Notes under the pieces: model-generated
Told to the model about the DNA's origin: nothing
What the model saw: the letters and a program-made list of their open reading frames with translations, nothing else
Database searches by the model: none
Source: Lachnospiraceae bacterium
GTDB taxonomy: Bacteria > Bacillota > Clostridia > Lachnospirales > Lachnospiraceae
Length of the DNA: 64,000 bases
Direction: 5' to 3'
Assembly (NCBI GenBank): GCA_017442865.1
Contig: JAFRXK010000023.1
Span: 1 to 64,000, forward strand
Made by a program: the position numbers and the translations under genes
In this document: piece by piece, positions 17,534 through 53,304 of the stretch
Layout: each line of letters starts with the position of its first letter
How positions within the stretch are numbered: position 1 is the stretch's first letter

Positions 17534-18376
17534 CTATTTTATGAGCATATTTAAGCACTCGCCATATATTTTCTCTGTTTGCGACAGAACGCCTTCAGGT
17601 ATTTTATCAAACTGAAATTCCCCATCAGCTTTATTATTCATAAGCCAGTCTCTAAGCAATTGCTTATCGTATGATTTTGGCGAAATGCCCACCTTATAAT
17701 CAGAAACGCTCCAGAACCGGCTTGAATCAGGAGTAAATATTTCGTCAGCTAAAACCAATTCGCCTTGCTTGTTAATACCAAATTCAAACTTTGCATCTGC
17801 AATTATCATTCCCTTTGAATATGCATATTTACTGCATCTATCATATAACTTAAAGCAAATATCAATTATCCTATCAGTAAGCTTTACACCGAGCTTTTCT
17901 GTAACAAATTCAATGTCCACATATTCATCATGTCCTACATCACGTTTTATTGCCGGTGTCATAATTACCCGCTCAAGTTTTTGTGCCAGCTTATAATCGC
18001 CTGAAAGAATATTACCACAAAAGCTTTCACCGCTCTTATAAGCCTTCCACATGCTCCCGAACATATATCCGCGAACCACAAATTCAAAAGGCAGGATACC
18101 AAGCTTTTCAACCATTACCGTTCTATCTTTGAAATATTCAGTTCTGAAGAACTCAGGCATATTTTCAATATCATCGTCCACAATATGATTTGCAACAATA
18201 TCTCTTGTATTCCTGAACCAAAAGTTTGACAGAGTATTCAGCACCACTCCCTTATTTTTTATCATAACAGGCAATATGTTGTCAAACGCTGATATCCTGT
18301 CTGTTGTAACAACAACTAAATATTCATCTGAAATGTCATAAAGCTCGCGCACTTTGCCACTATATATTGGTTTCAT
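17534..18376 (-). CDS. purC: Phosphoribosylaminoimidazole-succinocarboxamide synthase (SAICAR synthetase)
   Basis: Joins aspartate to CAIR in purine synthesis, using ATP. The 280-residue product starts MKPIYSGKVRELYD and has VVTTDRISAFD, the ATP-site block KLGILPFEFVVRGYMFGS, and IIADAKFEFGI plus LADEIFTPDSSRFW with the substrate-binding residues. The ATG at 18376 was chosen because GAGGAG lies upstream; an in-frame ATG 18 bases earlier would overlap that site. No other pur gene is nearby. Three palindromic repeats lie upstream. No purine riboswitch motif was seen. Confidence 0.96.
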   Translation of the reverse strand: MKPIYSGKVRELYDISDEYLVVVTTDRISAFDNILPVMIKNKGVVLNTLSNFWFRNTRDIVANHIVDDDIENMPEFFRTEYFKDRTVMVEKLGILPFEFVVRGYMFGSMWKAYKSGESFCGNILSGDYKLAQKLERVIMTPAIKRDVGHDEYVDIEFVTEKLGVKLTDRIIDICFKLYDRCSKYAYSKGMIIADAKFEFGINKQGELVLADEIFTPDSSRFWSVSDYKVGISPKSYDKQLLRDWLMNNKADGEFQFDKIPEGVLSQTEKIYGECLNMLIK

Positions 18377-18499
18377 AAATATAGCTCCTCTCATATGATT
18401 TCTTGTACAAACATTTTATCATCACTGTAACAAGCAGTTAATAACCTGTCGGTTGAAGTTTTCAAAAACATTCTACCTTCAGTAGAATCCACATCAATC

Positions 18500-18710
18500 T
18501 GTATTTAGCAATGGTACATTCCGAATCGAATGAATATTTTCTGTTGCAGGCAAGCGTATTACATCAAAACTGTCACTGGCAGTTTTGATGCATACTAAGG
18601 TACTAAGGCGTTTACGCCTGAGCCTTAGCCTGCGAGGATAAAATATTCATTCTTTTTCATCTCCTCTCAAATCCCTTACCACCCTATACACTTTCCTCCC
18701 GATTTTCATA
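18500..18710. repeat. Palindromic intergenic repeat, copy 1
   Basis: A 211-base unit beginning TGTATTTAGCAATGGTACAT and ending CCTCCCGATTTTCATA. Its core is a nested palindrome: GAATGAATATTTT near 18528 pairs with AAAATATTCATTC near 18640. Inside are ATCAAAACTG/CAGTTTTGAT, GGCGTTTACGCC and AGCCTGCGAGGAT. It is almost identical to copy 2. Confidence 0.85.
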
Positions 18711-18730
18711 TTATATTTATATAACCAATT

Positions 18731-18940
18731 TGTATTTAGCAATGGTACATTCCGAATCGAATGAATATTTCTGTTGCAGGCAAGCGTATTACATCAAAAC
18801 TGTCACTGGCAGTTTTGATGCATACTAAGGCACGAAGGCGTTTACGCCTGAGCCTTAGCCTGCGAGGATAAAATATTCATTCTTTTTCATCTCCTCTCAA
18901 ATCCCTTACCACCCTATAAACTTTCCTCCCGATTTTCATA
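18731..18940. repeat. Palindromic intergenic repeat, copy 2
   Basis: A 210-base direct copy of the unit at 18500, about 20 bases further on. Only a few differences are seen: one T fewer in the left arm, CACG for TACT before the GGCGT stem, and one base near the right end. The spacing and near identity suggest recent duplication. Confidence 0.85.
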
Positions 18941-18981
18941 GTATATTATATAGATTATTGATTTTTGCAAAGTCTTCATAT

Positions 18982-19065
18982 GGAATGAATATTTTTATCC
19001 TCAGGCAGGCGTATCGAAGGCGTTTACGCCTGAGCCTTAGCCTGCGAGGATAAAATATTCATTCC
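18982..19065. repeat. Palindromic intergenic repeat, copy 3 (core only)
   Basis: An 84-base shortened form with nearly perfect ends: GGAATGAATATTTT pairs with AAAATATTCATTCC, continuing through ATCCTC and GAGGAT and GGCAGGC with GCCTGC. The inner hairpin with CAGTTTTGAT is deleted. It shows that the palindromic core can exist without the flanks. Confidence 0.8.
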
Positions 19066-19097
19066 ATTATAAAAAACTCGGCAACAATCAAGTATTG

Positions 19098-19103
19098 TAT
19101 AAT
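19098..19103 (+). promoter_or_regulatory. Possible -10 element before the ABC importer genes
   Basis: A perfect TATAAT lies 20 bases before the ATPase start. No convincing -35 is present 17 bases upstream, and the leader would be very short, so this is tentative. Confidence 0.25.
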
Positions 19104-19122
19104 AAAAATCGGGAGGAAATTT

Positions 19123-19887
19123 ATGCATCCTGCTTTGGAATTTGAAGACGTATCCTTTTCTTATCACACAATTAACGGCGAAGTTCCTGCTATTAATCAT
19201 ATATCATTTACCGTAAAAAAAGGCGAATTTATTTCTATTGTCGGACCGTCCGGCTGCGGAAAATCCACGCTTATGTCCCTTATCTGCGGCCTTATAACGC
19301 CTGAAAGCGGACATATCAGCATAGACGGCATGCCACTTGGCAGTCAGACCTCAAAAATAGGTTATATGCTGCAAAAGGACTATTTGTTTGAGTGGAGAAC
19401 GGTTTATGACAATGTAAAGCTTGGGCTTGAAATCCACAGGCTTGACCCAAAGGAAAGCAATATTGACACAATGCTTGAAAATTATGCATTAAAAGACTTT
19501 ACAGATGCAAAGCCGTCAGAGCTTTCGGGCGGAATGCGTCAGAGAGCCGCACTTATACGCACGCTTGCACTTGAGCCTGAAATACTGCTGTTGGATGAAC
19601 CATTTTCGGCGCTTGATTACCAGACGCGGCTTGAAGTCGGCGGCGATATTGCAAATATTATTAAGCATGAGCACAAAACAGCTATTCTGGTAACACATGA
19701 TATCTCCGAGGCAATAAGCCTTTCAGAGCGTGTGCTTGTATTTTCTGCGCGCCCTGCAACCATCAAGGCATCCATAGACATTACATTTCCTGATGAATGC
19801 AAAACATCAATGGATAAACGAAATTCAGCTAAATTTCAGAACTATTTTAAACTGATATGGGAGGAGCTTACCAATGAAACAAAGTAA
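19123..19887 (+). CDS. ABC importer ATP-binding protein (SsuB/TauB/ThiZ class)
   Basis: A 254-residue ATPase of the nitrate/sulfonate/thiamine-precursor importer class. Motifs: Walker A GPSGCGKST (about 42-50), Q-loop GYMLQKDYLFEWRTV, signature LSGGMRQRAAL, Walker B LLLDEPFSALD and VTHDISEA. GGGAGG stands before the ATG. The 3' end overlaps the permease gene by 14 bases. The matching binding lipoprotein is probably encoded at 26082. The substrate cannot be read from the ATPase; a pyrimidine or alkylsulfonate-like small molecule is typical. No TPP riboswitch was seen upstream. Confidence 0.93.
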   Translation: MHPALEFEDVSFSYHTINGEVPAINHISFTVKKGEFISIVGPSGCGKSTLMSLICGLITPESGHISIDGMPLGSQTSKIGYMLQKDYLFEWRTVYDNVKLGLEIHRLDPKESNIDTMLENYALKDFTDAKPSELSGGMRQRAALIRTLALEPEILLLDEPFSALDYQTRLEVGGDIANIIKHEHKTAILVTHDISEAISLSERVLVFSARPATIKASIDITFPDECKTSMDKRNSAKFQNYFKLIWEELTNETK

Positions 19888-20680
19888 TATTTCAGAAAGG
19901 CAGTTAGAATATATCAATAGTATAAAGCGGCGTAAAATCATCATTTTCATAGCAAGAATCCTGATTTTTGCCGCATTTATGGGACTGTGGGAAGCCGCCG
20001 CAAGAACCAGCGCAATTAACGATTTTATTTTCAGCAGTCCGTCACGAATGCTTGACAGTTTAATTACGCTTGCCGGAGACGGCAGCCTTTTTATACACAT
20101 CGGCGTTACCCTCGCCGAAACAATACTAAGCTTCATAATCACCACAGTATTGGGAATTACTATTGCGCTTGTTTTGTGGGCATTCACCGGTTTTGCAAGA
20201 GTAATAGACGTATATCTCGTAATACTAAACAGTCTTCCGAAGACGGCGCTTGCGCCTGTGCTTATAGTGTGGCTCGGCAACAACCCTAAAACCATTGTTA
20301 TCACCGCAATATCCGTCGCTGTTTTTGGCTCAATTATAACGCTTTACACTGGCTTTAATTCAATGGACCCCGACAAAATCAAGCTCATAACAACTCTTGG
20401 CGGCAGCCGCAGGCATATACTTACAAAAGTGCTTCTGCCAGGCTCGCTGCCCCTTATCGTAAGCAATATGAAGGTGAATATCGGTCTTTGCCTTGTCGGA
20501 GTAATTATAGGTGAATTTCTTGCCGCAGACAAGGGACTCGGTTATCTTATAATTTATTCGAGTCAGGTGTTCAAAATGGATTATGTAATGCTTTCAATAT
20601 TTGTTCTTTGTATTATTGCAATGGGACTGTATCAGATAATAAATTATCTTGAAAAAAGGCTTTGTGTTGAAAATAATTGA
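19874..20680 (+). CDS. ABC importer permease (SsuC/TauC/ThiX class)
   Basis: A 268-residue inner-membrane protein with about six helices. The start is cytoplasmic (KRRKIIIF), followed by a helix with MGLWEAAAR. The BPD_transp_1 EAA loop is seen as TTLGGSRRHILTKVLLPGSLP (about 175-195). GGGAGGAGCTT precedes the ATG, which lies inside the end of the ATPase gene, so the two are translationally coupled. It forms the channel for the ATPase at 19123. Two strong hairpins follow the stop. Confidence 0.92.
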   Translation: MKQSNISERQLEYINSIKRRKIIIFIARILIFAAFMGLWEAAARTSAINDFIFSSPSRMLDSLITLAGDGSLFIHIGVTLAETILSFIITTVLGITIALVLWAFTGFARVIDVYLVILNSLPKTALAPVLIVWLGNNPKTIVITAISVAVFGSIITLYTGFNSMDPDKIKLITTLGGSRRHILTKVLLPGSLPLIVSNMKVNIGLCLVGVIIGEFLAADKGLGYLIIYSSQVFKMDYVMLSIFVLCIIAMGLYQIINYLEKRLCVENN

Positions 20681-52429: not shown

Positions 52430-52552
52430 GCTAAACTCTCCTTATCTATCAACGTATCTCATTAATCTGACGTTTTATTTTACCATTAATAAATAAATAC
52501 TGCAAGAGCAAATTTATCTTATTTTACATAATTCTTTTTTAGTATCCATTAC

Positions 52553-52853
52553 GCTGCAAATGGCTGTTATTATTTGATTCATTATGCTGCAAATCGTTAT
52601 TATTATTGCCTAATCATGATATCAAAGCTGCCTGTCACCACAACTTTTGTTTACATGTTTTTTTTATTTCTTTACGCTGCAAATGGCTGCTATTATCACT
52701 TAATCATGATATCAAAGCTGCCTGTCACCACAACTTTTGTTTACATGTTTTTTTATTTCTTTACGCTGCAAATGGCTGCTATTATCACTTAATCATGATA
52801 TCAAAGCTGCCTGTCACCACAACTTTTGTTTACATATTTTTTTGATTCATTAT
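52553..52853. repeat. Tandem repeat, about 90-bp unit
   Basis: GCTGCAAAT starts at 52553, 52586, 52676, 52765 and 52854. Three full units of 90, 89 and 89 bases share TAATCATGATATCAAAGCTG, CCTGTCACCACAACTTTTGT and TTACATGTTTTTTT; the first short 33-base unit is partial. Repeated open frames here are artefacts of the repeat. There are no spacers, so this is not CRISPR. Confidence 0.9.
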
Positions 52854-52856
52854 GCT

Positions 52857-52934
52857 GCAAATGGCTGGGATAGTATGCCTGGATGACGATAGCAAAATTT
52901 GCGTGTCATCAGGCATACTATCCCAGCCATTTGC
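52857..52934. repeat. Long perfect inverted repeat (25-bp arms)
   Basis: The 25-base arm starting GCAAATGGCTGGGATAGTAT (52857-52881) is matched exactly by its reverse complement at 52910-52934. A single G bulge and a further five pairs (ATGAC/GTCAT) extend it, with a 17-base loop. The left arm begins in register with the fourth 90-bp unit. It lies 23 bases past the mazF stop. There is no T-run, so it is not a classical terminator. Confidence 0.9.
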
Positions 52935-52956
52935 CTATAATACACCCCAAAAAGAA

Positions 52957-53304
52957 TTATGTAAACAAATCCAGACTCACTTTCAGGGCAGCGTCGACCT
53001 TTATCATCGTATCTTCATTTAAGTGGCAGACCTTCTCCTTTAATCTCTGCTTGTCAATTGTTCTGAGCTGCTCCATAAGTATCACTGAATCCTTTATCAT
53101 ATTACAGCGATTTTTCTCCAGCTCAACATGTGTCGGCAGCTTTGCCTTGTTCATTTTAGATGTAATTGCAGCGCAGATTACTGTCGGGCTGTGGCGGTTG
53201 CCCATTTCATTCTGAATAATAAGCACTGGCCTTATTCCGCCCTGCTCTGAGCCTATTACAGGTCTTAAATCAGCATAATAAATATCTCCTCTTCGGATAA
53301 TCAC
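52957..53304 (-). CDS. mazF: MazF/PemK-type endoribonuclease
   Basis: A 115-residue mRNA interferase-like toxin. It begins [31 protein letters not shown], the diagnostic MazF/NdoA block, and has [18 protein letters not shown] and [17 protein letters not shown]. The start is GTG with GGAG about 11 bases upstream. It lies downstream of the NAD(P)HX repair gene. The usual antitoxin gene is not seen beside it, and no ORF of antitoxin size fits in the 142-base gap. Either a distant antitoxin or a non-toxic housekeeping role is possible. Confidence 0.92.

What the first reader, a model, noticed from the sequence alone, without database searches (positions are those of the whole stretch)
18500..19065. 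Three copies of a palindromic intergenic element, two full and one core-only
Two 210-base direct copies and one 84-base core share nested palindromes with GAATGAATATTTT arms. The core-only copy has better-matched arms than the full ones. Such an element resembles a MITE or REP-like unit moved by a transposase in trans, or a family of structured RNAs. Clustering of three in 570 bases is unusual.
Basis: seen in the sequence. Interest (0 to 1): 0.58.

Follow-up and report, generated by a model that had tools for sequence, protein, structure and literature searches.

The report
Dispersed hairpins with host-copied arms
The three look-alike hairpins belong to a small scattered family of short repeats in this bacterium, and most intact copies sit inside a large hairpin whose outer arm is a backwards copy of the neighbouring gene's edge, which looks like a trace of DNA copying that doubled back on itself.

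Summary
The repeats are real: two full copies and one core copy, each a far stronger hairpin than shuffled DNA. They are not a local duplication. A covariance model finds the same ~40-55 nt core at 13 loci (19 places at E<=0.1) in this genome and in none of 396 other genomes of the family. Four of the 13 loci are clusters in which the last copy is the intact one. The arms are locus-specific: two copies with identical cores (39/39) have arms hardly more alike than shuffled ones, yet each pairs perfectly. At 10 of 13 loci the 5' flank is an inverted copy of the 3' flank, and at seven the 3' side is demonstrably native (gene leaders or coding ends). Arm changes are almost all two-sided, without strand bias. 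I read this as an old REP/MITE-like hairpin family whose arms were written and repaired by template switching. An unrelated array at 52.5-53.0 kb in the same window has the same layout. Related Lachnospiraceae carry their own ~166 bp palindromic elements with clean ends.

The parts
18524..18655 (+). full copy 1 (core plus an extra hairpin)
   Evidence: CM E=5.2e-14; fold
18755..18885 (+). full copy 2
   Evidence: CM E=2.3e-13
18979..19067 (+). core-only, intact copy
   Evidence: CM E=3.9e-20; fold z -9.2
18667..18745 (-). inverted, diverged copy of the ABC-gene leader, between full copies 1 and 2
   Evidence: local alignment score 23.5
18897..18976 (-). second inverted copy of the same leader, directly before the core copy
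   Evidence: scores 31.5 and 34.5; z 10.3 against shuffles (first 70 nt)
19073..19145 (+). native 3' flank that was copied: leader with Shine-Dalgarno-like GGGAGGAAA, start codon, about 23 nt of coding sequence (the coding part only weakly similar)
17534..18394 (-). purC (SAICAR synthetase)
19123..19887 (+). ABC transporter ATPase, followed by its permease 19874-20680
52522..52969 (.). second, unrelated array of the same layout: half-palindrome plus inverted copy of the mazF-like gene's end, repeated, then an intact palindrome 52857-52934

Best explanation
An old, low-copy family of extragenic hairpins. The shared part is a ~40-55 nt core that was dispersed (how is not known; REP/MITE-like movement is inferred). 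The arms are not shared: they are locus-specific, and on the 5' side they are an inverted copy of the chromosomal DNA lying 3' of the core. Proposed mechanism: DNA synthesis stalls at the hairpin, the new strand folds back or switches template, and copies the 3' flank into the 5' side. Short events keep the inner stem perfect, longer ones (up to roughly 80-110 nt) copy gene leaders or gene ends, and slippage stacks truncated [inverted flank + hairpin] units on the 5' side, leaving the last copy intact. Shown: the dispersal, the locus-specific well-paired arms, the inverted host copies, the array layout. Inferred: template switching as the cause, and the route of dispersal.
For: 13 loci. C65 and C29 have 39/39 identical cores but arms at 18/28 and 19/27; over 66 pairs, arm identity averages 0.60 (5') and 0.64 (3') against 0.57 for shuffled arms, while within-locus pairing averages 0.97 (n=12). 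Inverted flank similarity outside the core at 10 of 13 loci, z 4.1 to 11.0; 0 of 20000 permutations reach the observed sum. The copied side is native: the alignment runs into rseP coding sequence whose protein end is conserved (42 tblastn hits against 80 relatives' loci, 30 reaching query residue 54 of 58 or beyond), into the pyrF and potD coding ends, and up to or just past the start codons of the ABC, mutS, DMT-type and lysS genes. 38 two-sided against 6 one-sided pair changes; 6 G.T and 6 A.C in 346 cells, against 16 of 229 G.U in 11 tRNAs. Array spacers at C43 and C76 are inverted copies of the native flank. Same layout at an unrelated palindrome in the window. Template switching is a published way to make and repair hairpin stems (PMC8794818, abstract, part of the introduction and discussion read).
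Against: Three of 13 loci (C16p, C15, C80) show no significant flank copy. Outer arms are diverged (about 70-90% alike by eye), so events are old and no before-state is visible; no genome of the same genus turned up in the searches. Arms do share a weak AT-rich consensus (TGAATAT..TATCC), so part of them may be element-borne. The constant polarity (3' flank the template at 7 of 7 readable loci) is not predicted by plain template switching. Eleven copies of the A. hallii palindrome and five of G421 show no flank copying.
Confidence: 0.55

Rival explanations
1. A classical MITE: the whole palindrome (core plus arms) is the mobile unit, moved by a transposase in trans; arms diverged after insertion.
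For: Such elements exist in relatives: 165-167 bp palindromes bounded by CTAG in G421 and 166 bp copies with CTAG-like ends in A. hallii. Weak shared arm consensus.
Against: No common ends seen in this family; identical cores with different, well-paired arms; arms contain copies of host coding sequence.
Confidence: 0.22
2. A structured RNA or cis-regulatory leader family, e.g. one hiding the ribosome site of the downstream gene.
For: Strong covariation; at C76 the Shine-Dalgarno-like region is paired; several loci lie before aminoacyl-tRNA synthetase and nucleotide-synthesis genes (gene names are my reading of the translations).
Against: Orientation to genes is mixed: 7 upstream in sense, 4 antisense, 2 at gene ends (my reading); G.T and A.C equally rare; no Rfam family; + strand more stable in 10 of 13, mostly by small margins.
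Confidence: 0.12
3. Elements landed inside pre-existing palindromes.
For: Nested inner (perfect) and outer (imperfect) stems at 10 loci.
Against: Gene ends and leaders are not normally palindromic over 70 nt (general knowledge); outer arms differ from locus to locus.
Confidence: 0.06
4. Assembly or amplification artefact (inverted chimeras).
For: The genome is an 85-contig draft.
Against: The inverted copies are diverged from their source, and unrelated loci show the same layout.
Confidence: 0.03

Closest known systems
REP / REPIN elements (PMC3733652 abstract read; PMC3116915 and PMC8266576 seen in search listings)
   Same: Short dispersed extragenic hairpins, species-specific, often clustered.
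   Different: No GTAG or CGTC tag seen; low copy number; long locus-specific arms; no linked tyrosine transposase found.
Palindromic MITE-like repeats such as RUP and the Yersinia palindromic sequence (PMC2229807, passages read), and the ~166 bp CTAG-bounded palindromes of relatives found here
   Same: Small, intergenic, multi-copy, non-coding palindromic units.
   Different: Those have fixed ends; here only the centre is clearly shared and the 5' arm copies the host flank.
Template-switch-made hairpins (PMC8794818, abstract and discussion read) and self-perfecting coding palindromes of Nematomorpha mitochondria (PMC6649704, passages read)
   Same: Well-matched arms with two-sided changes; reverse-complement copy of adjacent DNA.
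   Different: Those are not a dispersed family with a common core; a fixed direction is only suggested there for intrastrand events, whereas here the 3' side is the source at all readable loci.

Membership tests
REP | GTAG or CGTC tag at the foot of the hairpin | tested here: not met
   By inspection of the 12-row alignment and consensus
REP | dispersed extragenic hairpin | tested here: met
   13 loci, intergenic by the ORF map
REP | linked RAYT (Y1 transposase) | tested here: inconclusive
   3 partial Y1_Tnp matches, two at contig ends and one with a stop; no element within their fetched flanks
MITE | conserved terminal inverted repeats | tested here: not met
   Arms close to shuffled background between loci
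MITE | target-site duplication | not tested
   No common end to anchor a test; none noticed by eye
Template-switch palindrome | reverse-complement copy of adjacent sequence | tested here: met
   10 of 13 loci
Template-switch palindrome | two-sided changes with few G.U intermediates | tested here: met
   small tRNA comparison
Template-switch palindrome | ancestral state without the copy | not testable with these tools
   No genome of the same genus among the 61 and 397 searched
Rfam RNA families | match at gathering score | tested here: not met

The most novel reading that the evidence does not exclude
A mobile hairpin that moves as a ~40-55 nt core only and, on arrival, writes an inverted copy of the DNA on one fixed side of its landing site, so that each insertion builds its own tailor-made giant palindrome with constant polarity.
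Probability: 0.2. Interest if true: 0.8.

Novelty: new variant of a known kind. Interest (0 to 1): 0.55.

Why it matters
Compensatory changes are usually taken as strong evidence of a functional RNA. Here strong covariation comes with signs of DNA-level copying instead, in a setting where the copied source (a gene edge) can be read. If confirmed, it gives a natural bacterial case for testing how hairpins are made, perfected and multiplied, and warns against calling such families RNAs.

Tried and rejected
Local duplication only: rejected, 12 further loci. Rfam: no gathering match in the region; 11 weak matches at E<=5 look like chance. Copies in relatives: a DNA search of 61 genomes and a model search of 397 found only the own genome (the latter with stricter filters); no model match in 80 relatives' ispG loci nor in 400 kb of own sample; one exact-pattern scan of genome contigs gave nothing. 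A pattern hit at C54 is glycerol-kinase-like coding sequence, not a copy. Palindrome scan: the two hits in the 400 kb sample look low-complexity, and one shuffled block also passed. Promoter scan: 7 found against 3.0 (sd 2.0) in shuffles, no terminator; not pursued. Literature: searches returned no paper, no relevant one among the 8 listed of 163; so I cannot say that the phenomenon is unpublished. In the covariation alignment (A4) the full-type locus C16p was left out (12 of 13 intact loci). In one search L222 was dropped because its ends were not matched (11 of 12 used). In one search five intact copies were used of the eight G421 places folded. The first tRNA parse failed and was redone.

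Full report
What is there. The window holds two full copies and one core copy of a strongly folding repeat between purC (minus strand) and an ABC-transporter gene (plus strand). A covariance model built from seven copies finds it at 13 loci of this 2.77 Mb draft genome, 19 distinct places at E<=0.1 (counting each place once and not per strand), plus two degenerate full copies at C43 seen by their arm sequence. None of the 396 other family genomes searched has it.

Clusters. Four of 13 loci are clusters. The window is full-full-core; C43 and C16 are full-core-full-core; C67 is core-core. In each, the copy with the best model score is the last one, next to the 3' gene boundary; upstream core copies keep the 5' arm but lose the 3' arm.

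Arms. The conserved part is a 39-55 nt core. C65 and C29 share 39/39 core bases but their arms are only 18/28 and 19/27 alike, not far above the shuffled level (0.57). Within each locus the inner arms pair at 0.88 to 1.00. The pair count on 12 loci gives 16 pairs with two-sided changes, 38 two-sided against 6 one-sided cells, far above shuffles and slid controls. G.T and A.C mismatches are equally rare (6 and 6 of 346), so nothing points to one strand as an RNA; 11 tRNAs from the fetched loci give 16 G.U of 229 pairs. The tRNA set is small and the comparison rough.

Flanks. Outside the model match, the 5' flank resembles the reverse complement of the 3' flank of the same locus at 10 of 13 loci (z 4.1-11.0), more than that of any other locus; no permutation of 20000 reaches the observed sum. 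Seven loci show which side is native: the aligned 3' flank runs into the coding ends of rseP, pyrF and potD, or through the leader to the start codon, or a few bases past it, of the ABC, mutS, DMT-type and lysS genes (apart from the Pfam-checked window genes, gene names are my reading of the translations). The rseP protein end is conserved in relatives, so it was not supplied by the element. At C43 three of four units are preceded by such an inverted copy, at C76 two of three; the first unit of each lacks it. The end at the start codon is exact for some and approximate for others; at C76 weak similarity continues into the coding region.

Second instance. A scan for long imperfect palindromes flagged another array in the window, 52522-52969, between yebC and a mazF-like gene. 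Its core is unrelated and was found at one locus only. It too consists of half-palindromes with an inverted copy of the gene end (17 nt exact, 19-20 nt at 84-89%), followed by an intact palindrome.

Relatives. Long palindromes with other cores turned up at 4 places in 80 relatives' loci. In G421 (an uncultured Clostridium MAG) the element is 165-167 bp, bounded by CTAG or close to it, in three subfamilies 62-73% alike, with 98% within the two that have two copies. In Anaerobutyricum hallii DSM 3353 the query matched 46 stretches, 11 checked copies being 166 bp with CTAG-like ends; in Anaerobium acetethylicum 72 stretches, some in tandem. Where tested (five and eleven copies), these show no inverted flank copies, so flank copying is not a feature of every palindromic element.

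Reading. The simplest account is an old REP/MITE-like hairpin family acted on by template switching, the process described for hairpin stems in PMC8794818 (abstract, part of the introduction and discussion read). It explains the well-matched arms, the host copies and the stacked truncated units. It does not by itself explain why the 3' side is the template at all seven readable loci; that leaves room for an element-directed process. Dispersal is inferred from the copies alone. A regulatory effect is possible where the ribosome site lies in the stem (window) but was not tested.

Noticed in passing
window 52522-52969: Second array of half-palindromes plus inverted copies of the mazF-like gene end, then an intact 78-base palindrome; unrelated core, single locus.
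   Followed up: partly
L136, L191-L198 (G421): 165-167 bp palindromic elements bounded by CTAG, in three subfamilies; two copies sit at a TAG stop codon within CTAG.
   Followed up: partly
L222-L233 (A. hallii DSM 3353): High-copy 166 bp palindromic family inserted at CTAG-like sites; same length and similar target as in G421.
   Followed up: partly
L210-L221 (Anaerobium acetethylicum): 72 matching stretches of another giant palindrome, with tandem arrays at about 150-180 bp spacing.
   Followed up: no
L207-L209 (own genome C44, C20, C69): Y1 transposase fragments, two at contig ends, possibly one repeat split by the assembly.
   Followed up: no
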